Origin: Clostridiaceae bacterium
GTDB taxonomy: Bacteria > Bacillota > Clostridia > DSM-8532
DNA length: 47,666 nt
Direction: 5' to 3'
Assembly (NCBI GenBank): GCA_012719645.1
Contig: JAAXZX010000108.1
Coordinates: 1-47,666 of the forward strand
Each line of letters opens with the position of its first letter. Position 1 is the first letter of the stretch. The notes under the pieces were generated by a model that was given only the letters and a program-made list of their open reading frames with translations, did not search any database and was not told the DNA's origin. Of this stretch, positions 40,196 through 47,126 are shown piece by piece. Both the position numbers and the translations under genes were made by a program.

Positions 40196-40279
40196 CGTTT
40201 CAAAACACACATTTTTTAATCCCATGTGATAAAATTAAGGAGACCAAGCCATTATTCCTGCATTCGGGCGGTCAGGGGG

Positions 40280-41992
40280 ATGGATGCTATCATGCAGGAT
40301 GCATTTGAAAGTGAAGTCAAAAAGATAAATAAAGAAATCGCCTGGATGTGCTGGAAGAACAAAGTGGTCGGAGCCAATGTCGCGCTGTTTGATAACGAGA
40401 AGATACTGTATTCATACAATTATGGCTGCATAAACGAGGATGCGAACATTAAAAGCACAAACGACAGCCTGTACATGATAGGCTCAAACACCAAGGTCCT
40501 GACCGCGCTGGGAATCTTCAAGCTTATAGAAAACAATATGATTTCGCTGGACGATGATATCAGGAAATACATACCCGAGTTCAAAATAAACTCCCTTTTC
40601 GGAGATGTAAAAATTACGGTTGAAAACCTTCTGATGCACAGGTCAGGGATAGTTTCAGATCTATATAACCTGATCCTTGACCAGTCAAGGGATTATCATG
40701 AGGTTATTGAGGAACTGGGAAAAACATATCTTACTTCAGTCCCTGGCAGGATGTTTTCATATTCAAATGTAGGCTACACATTGCTGGGGATCATCATTGA
40801 AAGAGTTTCGGGATTGCCATATACGGAATATATCAGAAAAACCATTGCTGAGCCATTGGGAATAAAGATTCATTTCCTTAGGACAAGCGAGGAGAAAAAG
40901 CCGTACTCATCAATCATTTCACTGAGCTATGGCAAAGACGGAAAGGAGATGATTAATGAACCGACCCAGACCATGATTCCGGCCGGGTCAAATACATACA
41001 TGTCCATGAATGATTTCGTGAAGGTCGGCCAGATCTTCCTGAACAAAGACAATACCATACTTAAAAAAGAAACCCTTGAATTCATGGAGAGGCTGAATGT
41101 TTCCGAGCAGATTGACAATGAGCTTCAAAATGTCGGGTATGGCCTGTTTCATAACCAGTACGATTATGGTGAATCCGTGGGCAAGGTATTGGGACACGGC
41201 GGCAATACGACCTGCCATCATGCAATGTTCAACTATATCCCGAGCCTGAAAATAGGCGTCATTACCCTCACCAACAGCGAGCAGGCCACCGCATTGTCCA
41301 GGGCAATAGGACATAAGGCTTTAGCCGCGTATTTGAAAGCAAAGGGGTATATAAGCAGCGAGCTGACCATAGAGCATAAACATGTGCAGGATAGCTGCGA
41401 TGAATACCTGGGACAGTATGCGACCGCGCTTGGCCTCATGGATATCAGGAAGAACAAAAAGAACGAGTTGGCAACCAGGATACTTAAGTTCCCTGTCAGG
41501 CTTATACCCTGCGAAGACGGGTATTTGCAGTGCTATCCCGATAAATGGCTGCACAGGCTGCCACCCATAAAAAGGAGGATAAAAGGCATCCGGCTGAAAC
41601 TGATAAATTACTGCGGCGATGAGGTTATGGTCCTGGAACAGACATCCGGGTACTTTAAAACCAGGACCACAATGGGATGCAGGTATTCGGAAACCGAGAT
41701 CCCGGAATCATTCCGCGAGGCGTGCGGCCTTTATGAAGTAACGAATCAGAACTTAAGCAAGCTGAATATAAAATGCTCATTAAGAATTGAAGATGACAAG
41801 CTGAGGCTGGATGTAAAACTCAATGATATAAAGCTATGCTTTTACCTGAAAGTAATCGATGACAGCATGGCAATAACCCAGGGATTCGGCAGAATGGCAA
41901 GGGAAATGGTACAGATAAATAAAGCCGATGATGGCATATACTTGACTTGTGCCGGGATAATGCTGAGAAGAAAAGAAGACTGCAAAAAATAA
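40280..41992 (+). CDS. Serine hydrolase, class C beta-lactamase-like
   Basis: A protein of about 570 residues with a beta-lactamase/D-aminopeptidase-type domain in its first 370 residues. Ser-x-x-Lys is at Gly-Ser-Asn-Thr-Lys-Val (about 70), Tyr-x-Asn at Phe-Ser-Tyr-Ser-Asn-Val-Gly-Tyr (about 165), and a His-Gly-Gly-Asn-Thr segment (about 315) replaces the Lys-Thr-Gly box. The C-terminal 200 residues look beta-rich and are typical of large members of this group. No signal peptide is seen, so it may be cytosolic. The start is uncertain: ATG at 40280 directly follows GGGGG, ATG at 40292 and a GTG at 40226 are alternatives. The substrate is unknown; peptides, esters or D-amino acid compounds are possible. 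Confidence 0.85.
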   Translation: MDAIMQDAFESEVKKINKEIAWMCWKNKVVGANVALFDNEKILYSYNYGCINEDANIKSTNDSLYMIGSNTKVLTALGIFKLIENNMISLDDDIRKYIPEFKINSLFGDVKITVENLLMHRSGIVSDLYNLILDQSRDYHEVIEELGKTYLTSVPGRMFSYSNVGYTLLGIIIERVSGLPYTEYIRKTIAEPLGIKIHFLRTSEEKKPYSSIISLSYGKDGKEMINEPTQTMIPAGSNTYMSMNDFVKVGQIFLNKDNTILKKETLEFMERLNVSEQIDNELQNVGYGLFHNQYDYGESVGKVLGHGGNTTCHHAMFNYIPSLKIGVITLTNSEQATALSRAIGHKALAAYLKAKGYISSELTIEHKHVQDSCDEYLGQYATALGLMDIRKNKKNELATRILKFPVRLIPCEDGYLQCYPDKWLHRLPPIKRRIKGIRLKLINYCGDEVMVLEQTSGYFKTRTTMGCRYSETEIPESFREACGLYEVTNQNLSKLNIKCSLRIEDDKLRLDVKLNDIKLCFYLKVIDDSMAITQGFGRMAREMVQINKADDGIYLTCAGIMLRRKEDCKK

Positions 41993-42616: not shown

Positions 42617-42829
42617 ATGCCCAAGGACATAGAGAAACAGCTTATCCAGGAAAACCTCATGGATGCATATAGAAGAAGGCCTCCATACCAGCAGAATGAT
42701 TATTTAGGTTGGATCTTTAAAGCAAAGAGGGCGGAAACAAGGGAGAAGCGCATAGCATAGATGATCGAGGAACTGCGGATCGGTGACTGGTATATGGGTA
42801 TGAATTACATACAAGATAAACACAAGTAA
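42617..42829 (+). pseudogene. Remnant of a YdeI/OmpD-associated-type gene
   Basis: The frame from the ATG at 42617 reads Ala-Tyr-Arg-Arg-Arg-Pro-Pro-Tyr-Gln-Gln-Asn-Asp-Tyr-Leu-Gly-Trp-Ile, then Lys-Ala-Lys-Arg-Ala-Glu-Thr-Arg-Glu-Lys-Arg. This is the C-terminal signature of YdeI/OmpD-associated proteins. A TAG at 42758 interrupts it, and the continuing in-frame codons (Met-Ile-Glu-Glu-Leu to the TAA at 42829) still fit the family. It is short and broken, so likely a decayed fragment. The remaining DNA up to 43057 shows only a hairpin and the next promoter. Confidence 0.7.
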
Positions 42830-43057: not shown

Positions 43058-44188
43058 ATGAATAAGAAACAGTTAAAAAAACAAATAAAGGCTTCATTAA
43101 AGGAGCAAGGCTTTGTTATTAATAAAAATCGGATCGAACTGCCTTCCGATATTGTAAAAAACAAAATAAGAGAATTGCATGAAACTTCTGTGCGCCATAA
43201 AAGGGAAAATGCCAGCAATAACCTAAAGAAAGGAGAGAAACGTCTTATCCAATATATTGCCAGAGGCAGTGAAATAGATCCGGAGAGAATTAGGCCAAGC
43301 CTGATCACAGTAACCCCAGGCTCGATTGAAGAATTGCTCTTCCGGTATGCCAGCCTGCATTGGAGTATACCCGTTTCTTCCGGTTACGGAAGACGGCTCC
43401 GTTTTCTTGTAATGGATTCACACCATGAGAAACTTATTGGTCTGATAGGCTTGGGAGATCCGGTATACAGCCTGAAAGCAAGAGATGATTGGGTTGGATG
43501 GAACAGCGAGCAAAAAAAAGAAAGGCTCAGTCATGTGATGGATGCTTTCGTTTTGGGTGCGGTACCTCCTTATTCTTATTTACTGTGCGGTAAACTCGTT
43601 GCGATGCTGGCAGCAAGCAATGAAGTCCGGGAAGCGTTTATGGAGAAATACGGGAATAAGGAGACCCTTATTCAGAAAAAAGTACATGATGGCAGCCTTG
43701 CTATGATTACAACTACTTCAGCATTAGGCAGATCTTCATTGTATAACAGGCTGAAATACCAGGATAGACTCCTTTATCATAAGGTAGGTTTTACAAAAGG
43801 TTTCGGCGAGTTCCATTTTTTAAATGGACTTTATGATGAAATCTATAAATATGTGAGCAGGAATTTCGAACCCACATCAAAGCATGCTTCATGGGGCAAC
43901 GGCTTTCGCAACCGAAGGGAGATTATAGGAAAATGCCTGAAAGCTTTGGGGCTTACAAGTGATTGGCTGAAGCACGGTATACAGCGAGAGATCTATGTAA
44001 TCCCTCTTGCCGAAAATACCAGGAATTTTTTACAGGGATATGATAATATATTAATTGAATACAATCAGTCTGTTGATGACTTATTTGAATATTTCAGGGA
44101 AAGGTGGCTGCTTCCCAGGGCAGCAAGAAATAATAATTACTTGAACTTTGACCCGCAATCATATTTATTGTGGGAACAAGGCGGGTGA
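43058..44188 (+). CDS. DruA-like protein (DUF4338)
   Basis: A 376-residue protein that matches the DUF4338 family of DruA, a component of the Druantia anti-phage system. The core segment Ile-Gly-Leu-Gly-Asp-Pro-Val-Tyr ... Arg-Asp-Asp-Trp-Val-Gly-Trp-Asn (about 130-149) is followed by Val-Met-Asp-Ala-Phe-Val-Leu-Gly-Ala-Val-Pro-Pro-Tyr (about 160-172) and Gly-Lys-Leu-Val-Ala-Met-Leu (about 178-184). These are the parts I recognise. No membrane or nuclease motif is evident, so its activity is unknown. The ribosome binding site is weak. It opens an operon with NurA and HerA. No DruE-type DUF1998 helicase is present, so this is not a standard Druantia locus. Codon use is A+T-rich, consistent with transfer. 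Confidence 0.82.
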   Translation: MNKKQLKKQIKASLKEQGFVINKNRIELPSDIVKNKIRELHETSVRHKRENASNNLKKGEKRLIQYIARGSEIDPERIRPSLITVTPGSIEELLFRYASLHWSIPVSSGYGRRLRFLVMDSHHEKLIGLIGLGDPVYSLKARDDWVGWNSEQKKERLSHVMDAFVLGAVPPYSYLLCGKLVAMLAASNEVREAFMEKYGNKETLIQKKVHDGSLAMITTTSALGRSSLYNRLKYQDRLLYHKVGFTKGFGEFHFLNGLYDEIYKYVSRNFEPTSKHASWGNGFRNRREIIGKCLKALGLTSDWLKHGIQREIYVIPLAENTRNFLQGYDNILIEYNQSVDDLFEYFRERWLLPRAARNNNYLNFDPQSYLLWEQGG

Positions 44189-44193
44189 GAGTA

Positions 44194-45339
44194 ATGGATC
44201 AGGATAAATCATTATTTGCCGATTTACCAGTAGCCTTGGTTGATGAGGTATTGAGTAAGGCTTCGGATGCTGGAGCCAATATGCTGGAAACACTCAAGGA
44301 GCTGAAGAAGAATCGTGAAAACCAGCGCAAGGAACTGATAGATAAAGAGTTAATCATCCACGAATCCGACTTGGGTTATCCGCCATTGCCAACAACCTGC
44401 GGAGTAGATGGTTCATATGCGATCGAGAGACTTTTGACGGCTGATTTTGTTGCAGCGGCTGCGGTAGCCGTGGAAGGTCTTACCCCTCCATCAGAGAAAC
44501 GTTATTGGGAACAGCCCAATCATTCTGTCTATATATCAACTGAAACACATAATCCCGATACTTCAACGGTGCTCCGAGCGGTAATGCTGGGCAGGGAATT
44601 ATTACTTGCAATGAAAGCCCCTCACGACATTGTAATGCTGGACGGGACAATGACACTTCCCATAATATATTTCAACCAGGCTTTGAATAAGGCACCTGAA
44701 ACTCCGGAGCTTAATTGTTCCCAGGAATTCCTGAATCATTTCCTTGAATACTTTGAAGCATATCTTTCCATTCTAAAGGGTTCGCGTTCGGACAAGCACT
44801 ATGTTGCTATGCCAAAGTATTCTACCCGAAGAGAGATTGGAAAACTGATGCGTTGGGATATGAAACAGGACGACAGGGGGTTACTGACCAGTCTGTTAAA
44901 ACCAGGAGAACTGACCAAGCCGGTTCCATTGGAGAAACCTGACCAGCCATGGCATCTAAATACAAATGCGGTTCCAAACGTGGGAGGCAGGGCATCAGAG
45001 ATTAGTGAGCAAATCGTCAATGCTTTATATCAGGTATATGTATGTCATTATAAACCTCATAGTTGGCTTCCTGCAATCCGTTTGGAGTTTTCAGAGAGCC
45101 TTGCGAAAAACATGCATCGTATGGCGGTATTAATGCAAGGGATAAAACACCAATGTGCTACCGCATCGATGCTTGAGCCATATCCGATATATCTTGCGGA
45201 TCGCACGGTGAAGGCATTGGCAAGGTCATTGCCGACTTTCCGTCAGGTCGCAACTCAATATATATCAGAAAACTATGATGGAGATATTGGAGAAGTCTTT
45301 TTTTCTATGCATGGTTACCGTAGCGAAACGGGGGGTTGA
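44194..45339 (+). CDS. nurA: NurA-type DNA nuclease
   Basis: A 381-residue protein with a NurA domain, an RNase H-fold nuclease that acts with HerA on DNA ends. Candidate metal-binding acids are Asp-72 in Gly-Val-Asp-Gly-Ser-Tyr-Ala, Glu-135 in Gly-Arg-Glu-Leu-Leu-Leu-Ala, Asp-150 in Ile-Val-Met-Leu-Asp-Gly-Thr and Asp-336 in Tyr-Pro-Ile-Tyr-Leu-Ala-Asp-Arg. Met-Pro-Lys-Tyr-Ser near 206 fits the family. The ATG at 44194 is six bases after the druA stop. The stop overlaps a possible TTG start of herA. In archaea NurA-HerA pair with Mre11-Rad50; none is present here. Confidence 0.87.
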   Translation: MDQDKSLFADLPVALVDEVLSKASDAGANMLETLKELKKNRENQRKELIDKELIIHESDLGYPPLPTTCGVDGSYAIERLLTADFVAAAAVAVEGLTPPSEKRYWEQPNHSVYISTETHNPDTSTVLRAVMLGRELLLAMKAPHDIVMLDGTMTLPIIYFNQALNKAPETPELNCSQEFLNHFLEYFEAYLSILKGSRSDKHYVAMPKYSTRREIGKLMRWDMKQDDRGLLTSLLKPGELTKPVPLEKPDQPWHLNTNAVPNVGGRASEISEQIVNALYQVYVCHYKPHSWLPAIRLEFSESLAKNMHRMAVLMQGIKHQCATASMLEPYPIYLADRTVKALARSLPTFRQVATQYISENYDGDIGEVFFSMHGYRSETGG

Positions 45340-45341
45340 AA

Positions 45342-47126
45342 ATGGAGATCATAACTGAGAGTGTAGAGCAAACTATAAGCCAAACAGAGAGGTTGGGCGT
45401 TGTCGGTTCTCCTTCCTCAACATCACAATTAGCCATGGATATTCTTGGGGTGGCAGCCGGAAGAAAGCTGGTGGGGGAACTGGCATTGTTCCGTTTCCCG
45501 CAGGATGGCCTGGAGCATTATGCAATTGGACAGATAATGGAAGTGGAGCTTCGAAATATATGGCATGAAGACCCGACAATGAGAAGCCTGATACGACAGC
45601 GGGGCAGGGTGGATGCAGTTAGTGAACGGCAGGATACTCACCTGGGTAAAATGATTGTGAGTGCAGTGTTTCAAAACACTGGAAGCAATGTATATGAGCC
45701 AAGTATCTTGGGAACAGTACCTTGCACCGGAACACCGATACATGTGGTAACAGACGAGGTATTGGATACTATTCTACGGCCATATCAAAATCAAATCTAT
45801 TATTTGGGACATGTTTACGGGTCAAAGCCTAAACTCCCATTATGGTTCAAGCATTTTGACAAGGGCCCGGACGGCGCGGGAGAGGCTTACCATATTGGAA
45901 TATTCGGGAAAACAGGTTCCGGCAAATCAGTCCTTGCTAAAATGGTATTGCTTGCTTATGCAAGATACCCTAAGATGGCGCTTCTGGTGATTGATCCGCA
46001 GGGTGAGTTTGCCAAGGATATCCAGGGACAGACATCTGGAGAATTCTCTTTACCGTTAGGAAAGATACTCAATAATCAGGGGAAGAAAACAGTTGTCATG
46101 ACTGTCCGGAATCTTGTTCTGGATACATGGGAATTGTTTGAGCAGATACTATATGAGTCTCCATTCTTTGAAAGACTGAGCATTCCCAAGGGGGATAACA
46201 GAGAAATCGCCTGCAATATACTGGCTGAAAAGCTCGCAAAGGCCAGGGTAAAGCTTGCAGAACTATATCAGCCAGTATCGTTTGAAAAAGCATGGTCTTT
46301 GTTATCTGATGACAAGGTACAAAAGGTTATTTACAAAAGTGAAAGCGCCAGGGAAAGATTTGCTTCGATGCTTGAAGAAGCTGATAAAAATGAATTCTAT
46401 AATGATTATTGGAAGCCTGTAGCCGAACTATTCCGTGAAGACAGGCATGGAGCTCGCTCGGTAAATAATGCTTTGGGATGGTTGCTGCAATTTGGCAGAG
46501 AAAAAGACTCTCCCAATGCCAGACCAGTGCTGGTTGTTGATCTGTCTCGGGAGCAAGCAAAAGGAATGTTCTGGAACGATAAGATACAATCCCTTGTAAT
46601 TAAACGCTTACTGGATGCTTTAAACGCGAATGCCGAGTATTATTATCTCCAGGGACAAAACCTGAACACACTTGTGATCATAGATGAGGCGCATCGTTTA
46701 GCTCCTCGAGAGTTACCAAGGGACGATGATGCTGCCAAGGGGGTTCGCTCTATTCTTGTGGATGCGGCGAGAACAACAAGAAAATATGGTTTGGGTTGGC
46801 TGTTCATAAGCCAAACATTATCAAGCCTGGATATTGAGATAGTGCAGCAGATGCGCATCTTCTTTTTTGGATTTGGACTTGGGCTCGGGCAGGAGTATCA
46901 GGCTTTGAGACAGCTTGTTGGTTCTTCGGGTAATGCTCTGAACCTATATCAATTGTTCAGGGATCCGCACTCAGCATTTGACATGGCAAGCAGGCAGTAT
47001 TCGTTTATGACAATAGGACCGGTAAGCCCATTGTCATTTGCAGGAACGCCATTGTTTTTCAACGCGTTTAATGCAGTTGAAGCTTTCCTTGAAGCGAATA
47101 ATTTCAGAATGAGCTCTGCGCCATAA
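45342..47126 (+). CDS. herA: HerA-type hexameric DNA translocase ATPase
   Basis: A 594-residue HerA/FtsK-superfamily ATPase. The N-terminal 170 residues look like a HAS-barrel domain. Walker A is Gly-Lys-Thr-Gly-Ser-Gly-Lys-Ser (189-196). Asp-Pro-Gln-Gly-Glu-Phe follows near 218, a helical insert covers about 255-390, and Walker B is Leu-Val-Ile-Ile-Asp-Glu (444-449). An Arg-Thr-Thr-Arg-Lys-Tyr-Gly ... Phe-Ile-Ser-Gln segment (477-491) holds the sensor/Arg-finger region. It should translocate DNA and stimulate NurA. The ATG at 45342 has GGGGGG 6 bases upstream and is just past the nurA stop. A TTG at 45336 is an alternative. No further gene follows in the operon. Confidence 0.9.
   Translation: MEIITESVEQTISQTERLGVVGSPSSTSQLAMDILGVAAGRKLVGELALFRFPQDGLEHYAIGQIMEVELRNIWHEDPTMRSLIRQRGRVDAVSERQDTHLGKMIVSAVFQNTGSNVYEPSILGTVPCTGTPIHVVTDEVLDTILRPYQNQIYYLGHVYGSKPKLPLWFKHFDKGPDGAGEAYHIGIFGKTGSGKSVLAKMVLLAYARYPKMALLVIDPQGEFAKDIQGQTSGEFSLPLGKILNNQGKKTVVMTVRNLVLDTWELFEQILYESPFFERLSIPKGDNREIACNILAEKLAKARVKLAELYQPVSFEKAWSLLSDDKVQKVIYKSESARERFASMLEEADKNEFYNDYWKPVAELFREDRHGARSVNNALGWLLQFGREKDSPNARPVLVVDLSREQAKGMFWNDKIQSLVIKRLLDALNANAEYYYLQGQNLNTLVIIDEAHRLAPRELPRDDDAAKGVRSILVDAARTTRKYGLGWLFISQTLSSLDIEIVQQMRIFFFGFGLGLGQEYQALRQLVGSSGNALNLYQLFRDPHSAFDMASRQYSFMTIGPVSPLSFAGTPLFFNAFNAVEAFLEANNFRMSSAP

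What the first reader, a model, noticed from the sequence alone, without database searches (positions are those of the whole stretch)
43058..47126. Three-gene DruA-NurA-HerA operon, a candidate undescribed defence or DNA-processing system
Seen: three genes in one direction (6-base gap, then stop and start regions touching), encoding a DUF4338/DruA-like protein, a NurA-type nuclease and a HerA-type ATPase with intact Walker motifs and candidate nuclease acids. Known: HerA-NurA resects DNA ends in archaea, HerA is a recurrent partner in bacterial anti-phage systems, and DruA is a component of Druantia. Inferred: DruA replaces the usual effector or sensor and the three act as one system against invading DNA. 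No DruE helicase, DUF4297 or Sir2 partner is visible. The locus is A+T-rich, has a promoter of its own and sits beside a decayed gene. I cannot tell whether this combination has been published.
Basis: partly seen in the sequence, partly recalled or inferred. Interest (0 to 1): 0.85.

Follow-up and report, generated by a model that had tools for sequence, protein, structure and literature searches.

The report
Widespread DruA-NurA-HerA candidate defence operon
Three linked bacterial genes, which encode a DNA-pumping ring, a DNA-cutting nuclease and a DruA protein otherwise known from a phage-defence system, recur together across many bacterial phyla and probably form an undescribed system for destroying invading DNA.

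Summary
Window 43058-47126 carries DruA (PF14236, E 1.9e-120), a NurA nuclease (weak by sequence; its predicted fold matches solved NurA, E 3.6e-12) and a HerA/FtsK-type ATPase. The linkage is not a one-off. Of 56 bacterial loci with usable upstream sequence, 54 keep a DruA-family gene in the cassette. In samples drawn without regard to linkage, 7 of 8 NurA-bearing genomes of the own phylum and 17 of 17 in a Chloroflexota class do. All 21 triad genomes checked have one DruA: the triad's, in one case that of a second cassette. Seven of eight archaeal genomes with the closest NurA-HerA relatives have none. The host has AddA, lacks a DruE-type domain, and its four sampled congeners lack the triad. 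Related triads are cargo of a Tni transposon, apparent prophages and viral contigs. Some enclose GmrSD, a NACHT-like ATPase or Sacsin/NOV_C genes. Best explanation: a mobile anti-invader system in which HerA feeds DNA into NurA and DruA, probably GNAT-fold, licenses or directs attack. Defence is inferred; DruA's role is unproven. No paper or PADLOC/NCBIfam model found here describes the combination; subscription literature was not searchable. New variant of the known HerA-nuclease kind.

The parts
43058..44188 (+). druA: full-length DruA/DUF4338 protein, 376 aa, probable GNAT fold
   Evidence: PF14236 E 1.9e-120, 402 bits; PADLOC DruA model 403.9 bits; AlphaFold2 pLDDT 92.8; the Foldseek PDB list is dominated by GNAT acetyltransferases, best E 5.9e-3, none below 1e-3
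44194..45339 (+). nurA: NurA nuclease, 381 aa from ATG 44194 (alternative GTG start 44170)
   Evidence: PF09376 23.2 bits, just over the cut-off; AlphaFold2 pLDDT 90.5; Foldseek best hit NurA of T. kodakarensis HerA-NurA, E 3.6e-12
44407..44412 (+). NurA D72-G73, presumed counterpart of the catalytic Asp of T. kodakarensis NurA (D49)
   Evidence: both invariant in 51 homologues; D49A abolishes the T. kodakarensis nuclease (PMC12977600); the correspondence is inferred
44494..44496 (+). NurA E101, candidate metal ligand
   Evidence: invariant in 51 homologues
44641..44643 (+). NurA D150 at the end of a beta strand of the predicted fold, candidate metal ligand
   Evidence: invariant in 51 homologues; strand 146-150
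45310..45312 (+). NurA H373, candidate C-terminal catalytic histidine
   Evidence: H in 48 of 51 homologues
45342..47126 (+). herA: HerA/FtsK-type ATPase, 594 aa from ATG 45342 (alternative TTG start 45336)
   Evidence: DUF87 46.2 bits; profile matches solved defence HerA proteins and TdpA
45906..45929 (+). HerA Walker A GKTGSGKS
   Evidence: first seven residues invariant, the eighth S in 41 of 42 homologues
46671..46697 (+). HerA Walker B region (LVIIDEAHR)
   Evidence: D448 and E449 invariant in 42 homologues
42617..42829 (+). remnant of an unrelated gene upstream, with an internal stop (context, not part of the system)
   Evidence: frame read

Best explanation
The three genes form one mobile anti-invader (phage or plasmid) DNA-degradation system. 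HerA forms a hexameric ATP-driven DNA pump and NurA a dimeric nuclease at its exit; together they translocate and cut double-stranded DNA that offers an end, while a circular chromosome is largely spared. DruA binds this machine or its DNA and licenses or directs it onto invader DNA, as DruA presumably does for the DruE helicase in Druantia I. Shown here: gene identities, predicted folds, conserved motifs, near-obligate linkage across bacterial phyla, mobility of related copies, accessory defence genes inside related operons, and a normal AddA in the host. Inferred: complex formation, nuclease action in this system, defence as the purpose, and DruA's role.
For: Linkage: the cassette persists across Bacillota, Chloroflexota, Pseudomonadota, Nitrospirota, Poribacteria, Bacteroidota, Acidobacteriota and others. 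Samples drawn without regard to linkage: own class 3 of 3, own phylum 7 of 8, a Chloroflexota class 17 of 17, one of them with a short DruA. All 21 triad genomes searched have one DruA gene: the triad's own, except Pyrinomonas, where it belongs to a second triad. Machine: NurA fold matches solved HerA-NurA complexes, HerA matches solved defence HerA proteins, motifs conserved. Defence setting: GmrSD between nurA and herA in L027 and L055, a NACHT-like ATPase with pentapeptides (L021) or Sacsin/NOV_C (L025, and L074 directly before nurA) between druA and nurA; neighbours include McrB/McrC-like, DNA methylase, STAND-like and Nmad3 proteins. Mobility: TniA/TniB/TniQ directly before a triad (L152), a prophage-like setting (L205), a serine recombinase (L156), viral contigs, absence from four congeners. 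Literature: T. kodakarensis HerA-NurA cleaves both strands and its authors suggest antiviral rather than resection function (PMC12977600); HerA-DUF4297 is a proven defence machine (PMC11291478).
Against: No phage-resistance or biochemical data exist for any triad. The neighbourhood enrichment is weak and roughly measured. Many triads sit among housekeeping genes. The closest archaeal NurA-HerA relatives mostly lack DruA, so the pair has some function without it. Bacterial NurA-HerA of Deinococcus has been studied as a repair complex (PMC9960219).
Confidence: 0.66

Rival explanations
1. Modification-restriction version: DruA is a GNAT-fold enzyme that acylates a DNA base, marking self DNA, and HerA-NurA degrades unmarked DNA.
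For: DruA's PDB fold matches are dominated by GNATs, and a published analysis calls the DUF4338 domain a GNAT (PMC10853773). Many polar residues of DruA are invariant (R112, D120, K179, T219, S221, S226, S227, Y229, R231, H306, R310, R354), as in an enzyme. Mom-family GNATs modify adenine and in jumbo phages are fused to endonucleases (PMC7824862). Cyanophages and pelagiphages carry stand-alone DUF4338 genes. TdpAB, a solved complex, has a NurA-like subunit (8wfd_G) and a HerA-like TdpA.
Against: No profile similarity between DruA and Mu Mom. The GNAT R/QxxGxG/A motif is not retained: position 173 is mostly N or S. Archaeal genomes with this NurA-HerA type mostly lack DruA, so a protecting mark is not needed there.
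Confidence: 0.15
2. A chromosomal DNA-repair or end-resection system, with DruA as an accessory factor.
For: HerA-NurA was described as an end-resection pair in archaea and Deinococcus (PMC9960219), and thermophiles are prominent among the carriers. Two triad carriers (G894, G1114) show no AddA over the model's cut-off.
Against: The own genome and the triad carriers G070 and G134 carry AddA well over the model's cut-off. The triad is absent from all four congeners searched and is mobile cargo elsewhere. Defence genes are inserted inside related operons.
Confidence: 0.12
3. A module used by mobile elements themselves, for replication, packaging or competition with other elements.
For: Triads lie in viral contigs, a prophage-like region (L205) and a Tni transposon.
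Against: Most loci found lie in bacterial genome contigs with differing neighbours; no phage in the 50,697-record phage set carries this NurA.
Confidence: 0.05

Closest known systems
Druantia type I (DruA-DruE)
   Same: Full-length DruA of the same family; plasmid-borne Druantia DruA proteins are 35-40% identical to the window's over 95-98% of its length and stand beside or near a large DEAD/DEAH helicase
   Different: No DruE-type domain in the own genome and no large helicase in related triads; NurA and HerA take that place. [quoted passage not shown] DruA trees separate Druantia from triad DruA
Archaeal and Deinococcus HerA-NurA
   Same: Same two enzyme families, NurA fold match E 3.6e-12 to T. 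kodakarensis and 7.8e-6 to Deinococcus
   Different: No sequence hit to any solved NurA; DruA added; sporadic and mobile instead of a core repair gene
Sir2-HerA and DUF4297-HerA defence systems
   Same: HerA-type ring paired with an effector enzyme; DUF4297-HerA is a proven DNA-degrading anti-phage complex (PMC11291478)
   Different: Partner is NurA, an RNase H-like nuclease, plus DruA; the HerA is only distantly related to the PADLOC and NCBIfam defence HerA models
TdpAB (phosphorothioate-linked HerA-like/nuclease complex)
   Same: Solved TdpAB subunits resemble this NurA (8wfd_G, E 5.1e-4) and this HerA (TdpA, E 1.4e-6)
   Different: Closer to NurA than to the TdpAB subunit; DruA present; no phosphorothioation gene was seen among the neighbours annotated here, but this was not searched for systematically. 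Knowledge of TdpAB's mechanism is from memory

Membership tests
Druantia | DruA protein (type I) | tested here: met
   PF14236 402 bits
Druantia | DruE, YprA-family helicase with MZB/DUF1998 domain, shared by all types | tested here: not met
   No PF09369 match in the own genome; control search positive in 8 of 14 genomes, and L151's Druantia helicase matches it
Druantia | DruB-DruD partners (type I) | tested here: inconclusive
   No conserved extra partner in related triad loci, but DruB-D models were not searched one by one and the own contig ends 540 bases after herA
HerA-NurA | NurA fold with conserved acidic active site | tested here: met
   Foldseek E 3.6e-12; D72, E101 and D150 invariant in 51 sequences
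HerA-NurA | HerA/FtsK ATPase with intact Walker A and B | tested here: met
HerA-NurA | HerA-NurA complex in a 6:2 ratio with ATP-dependent nuclease activity | not testable with these tools
   needs purified proteins
Sir2-HerA / DUF4297-HerA | Sir2 or DUF4297 effector | tested here: not met
   the partner proteins match only DruA and NurA in Pfam
GNAT superfamily (DruA) | GNAT fold | tested here: inconclusive
   PDB hit list dominated by GNATs but best E 5.9e-3, none under 1e-3
GNAT superfamily (DruA) | R/QxxGxG/A acyl-CoA motif | tested here: not met
   the motif's presumed R/Q position (173) is N, S, D, A or T; only G178-K179 is invariant; the placement of the motif was done by eye
Mom DNA-modification family | profile similarity to Mu Mom | tested here: not met
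   hhalign probability 0.1%, E 0.77
TdpAB | link to phosphorothioate modification genes | not tested
   no Dnd/Tdp gene search was run

The most novel reading that the evidence does not exclude
DruA is a stand-alone infection-recognition or DNA-marking module, with a GNAT-like fold, that plugs into different DNA-destroying motors: the DruE helicase in Druantia I, the HerA-NurA pump-nuclease here, and possibly an FtsK-type translocase in haloarchaeal plasmids. The triad would then be a new class of defence that shares its recognition step with Druantia.
Probability: 0.35. Interest if true: 0.8.

Novelty: new variant of a known kind. Interest (0 to 1): 0.62.

Why it matters
If right, this is a widespread system, present in roughly 1 to 9% of genomes in the groups sampled, that PADLOC and NCBIfam report only as an isolated DruA plus generic ATPases. 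It would give bacterial NurA-HerA of this type a purpose, fit the recent proposal that HerA-NurA is antiviral rather than a resection machine, and make the unknown role of DruA testable in a three-protein system much smaller than Druantia I. It also offers a natural contrast: bacterial cassettes with DruA against archaeal relatives without it.

Tried and rejected
(1) Chance or one-genome arrangement: rejected by conservation across phyla. (2) DruA as a transposition-linked DUF4338: rejected for this gene; in the class search the shorter, partial-profile DUF4338 hits, multi-copy and partly broken in G065, are separate from the three full-length triad DruA genes. (3) Complete Druantia: rejected for lack of a DruE-type domain. 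(4) DruA related to Mu Mom: no profile match. (5) Defence-island enrichment by PADLOC family counts near (107), far (112) and random (51): only suggestive, because counts are of model families, far and near do not differ, and the random set contains one cas operon. (6) Sequence search of solved structures with the NurA and DruA profiles: nothing useful. (7) Using the upstream gene (40226-41992) to find an empty insertion site in relatives: the gene itself is not conserved there. (9) Inferring which DruA lineage is ancestral: not possible, the tree is unrooted. (10) Literature searches for the combination found nothing; TdpAB papers are not held.

Full report
OBSERVATION. The window's right end holds three genes in one direction: druA 43058-44188, nurA 44194-45339 and herA 45342-47126. 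The gaps are 5 and 2 bases if the ATG starts are used. Pfam gives DruA at 402 bits, NurA at 23.2 bits (cut-off 21) and DUF87/HerA at 46.2 bits. PADLOC recognises only DruA strongly and NCBIfam none of the three above cut-off. The region is A+T-rich (43.8% G+C against 50.1% for window 1-42500). No plus-strand promoter-like site was found in the 490 bases upstream. The window is one whole contig, so what follows herA is unknown beyond 540 bases.

IDENTITIES. The NurA assignment was weak by sequence, so a model was predicted from 51 homologues (pLDDT 90.5). Its best solved matches are NurA of Thermococcus kodakarensis (E 3.6e-12) and the NurA structures 3taz and 2ygk; Deinococcus NurA (E 7.8e-6) and a TdpAB subunit (E 5.1e-4) follow. 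D72, E101, D150 and other acidic residues are invariant. HerA keeps Walker A and B, and its profile matches solved defence HerA proteins and TdpA. DruA's model (pLDDT 92.8) meets mainly GNAT acetyltransferases in the PDB, but no single hit is below E 1e-3. A published analysis calls the DUF4338 domain a GNAT (PMC10853773). The standard acyl-CoA motif is not kept, while many polar residues are invariant. Uncharacterised proteins of giant viruses and phages match the DruA model more strongly (best E 1.3e-17).

CONSERVED LINKAGE. A profile of NurA found 69 loci in one-genome-per-species contigs, from Bacillota and Chloroflexota to Poribacteria, Nitrospirota, Bacteroidota and archaea. I counted 56 bacterial loci with usable upstream sequence by hand (near-identical loci from related genomes are included). 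In 49, DruA lies directly upstream of nurA on the same strand. In two (L021, L025) one gene lies between. In one (L040) DruA follows herA. In two (L019, L029) a short divergent DruA lies there. L050 has none, but that genome holds a second, complete triad. In L074 a Sacsin/NOV_C gene precedes nurA and the contig ends before DruA could be seen. So 54 of 56 have a DruA-family gene in the cassette. The loci were found with NurA only, so the count is not circular for DruA.

SAMPLES DRAWN WITHOUT REGARD TO LINKAGE. In the own class 3 of 291 genomes have this NurA, and all three have DruA and HerA; the three full-length DruA genes of that class are the same three loci, while the other DruA hits are shorter. 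In the own phylum 8 of 398 have it, 7 with DruA adjacent, including one in the order NurA-HerA-DruA (L205) and one with a broken, divergent DruA (L203); the eighth (L206) shows none on its 11.7 kb contig. In a Chloroflexota class 17 of 199 have it, 16 with full DruA and one with the short type. Starting from DruA in 250 genomes of the order of Tepidimonas, five long DruA genes were found: three triads, one of them with divergent NurA and HerA, one with a large MZB helicase as in Druantia, one undetermined. All 21 triad genomes searched have one DruA gene. By contrast 7 of 8 archaeal genomes holding the nearest NurA-HerA relatives have no DruA; the eighth has it beside herA.

EVOLUTION. DruA, NurA and HerA distances correlate across 38 sequences (Mantel r 0.68 DruA-NurA, 0.35 DruA-HerA, 0.57 NurA-HerA; no permutation of 2000 as high). 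This control ignores shared descent. The correlation is imperfect: L030, L033 and L067 pair a window-like DruA with NurA and HerA of the other group, so parts are exchanged while the triad is kept. In the DruA tree Druantia DruA proteins form a supported clade apart from the triad DruA groups. The tree is unrooted, so the direction of transfer is open.

SETTING. Genes inserted inside related cassettes are GmrSD (L027, L055), a NACHT-like ATPase with pentapeptide repeats (L021; only the repeats reached a Pfam cut-off, the ATPase reading is mine) and Sacsin/NOV_C (L025). Neighbours include McrB/McrC-like proteins, a DNA methylase, a STAND-like ATPase, Nmad3, NucS-like and PIN proteins, but also many housekeeping genes. 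PADLOC family counts (107 near, 112 far, 51 random) are at most suggestive. Mobile contexts: TniA/B/Q directly before the L152 triad, replication and late-regulator-like genes before L205 (read by eye), a serine recombinase before L156, and viral contigs L155 and L156. The host's four sampled congeners lack this NurA.

MECHANISM. In T. kodakarensis the HerA-NurA complex cuts both DNA strands, needs ATP for double-stranded DNA, and its authors consider antiviral defence likelier than end resection (PMC12977600). The own genome and the triad carriers G070 and G134, like three triad-less congeners, have AddA over the cut-off in a single match; G1023 passes when pieces are joined, while the carriers G894 and G1114 stay below it. 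So at least in the own host resection has another provider. I therefore favour an anti-invader degrader with DruA as the licensing or directing part. This last step is inference. The strongest rival is that DruA writes a protective base mark, for which Mom-type GNATs coupled to endonucleases are a precedent (PMC7824862); the missing Mom similarity and DruA-free archaeal relatives speak against it without excluding it.

NOVELTY. HerA-nuclease defence machines and DruA are each known. Their combination was not found in the open literature searched or in PADLOC and NCBIfam. Subscription papers and other catalogues could not be checked. I file it as a new variant of a known kind.

Noticed in passing
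L164 (Pelagibacter phage Mosig) 3695-4993; L165 (Synechococcus phage S-CAM9) 3674-4825: Stand-alone DUF4338/DruA-like genes in cyanophages and pelagiphages, in S-CAM9 between clamp-loader and regA genes of the replication module; possible counter-defence or DNA-modification role.
   Followed up: partly
L100 3672-10723 (Haloplanus plasmid): A long DruA gene followed by two unknown genes and a very large FtsK-type translocase, beside a DEAD/DEAH helicase operon: another DruA-motor pairing.
   Followed up: no
L152 8622-16742: Divergent DruA-NurA-HerA directly behind TniA, TniB and TniQ-like genes, as cargo of a Tni/Tn7-like transposon.
   Followed up: partly
L094 3706-11081 (Rhizobium plasmid): NurA-HerA with a GHKL-type ATPase gene and two unknown genes in place of DruA; perhaps another NurA-HerA defence type.
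   Followed up: no
L065 9968-16832 (Bathyarchaeota): NurA-HerA with a convergent DruA and a protein-kinase/ORC-CDC6-like protein next to it; herA is split into two ORFs.
   Followed up: no
L066 10004-11153 and L199: nurA split into 104 and 297 codon frames in one cassette; frameshift, sequencing error or recoding not resolved.
   Followed up: no
L079, L088, L090-L093 (genome G065): Several short DUF4338 copies in one genome, some with stops: looks like a mobile or decaying family distinct from triad DruA.
   Followed up: no
DruA model against BFVD: DruA-like folds in giant-virus proteins (Faunusvirus, Yasminevirus, Dasosvirus), function unknown.
   Followed up: no
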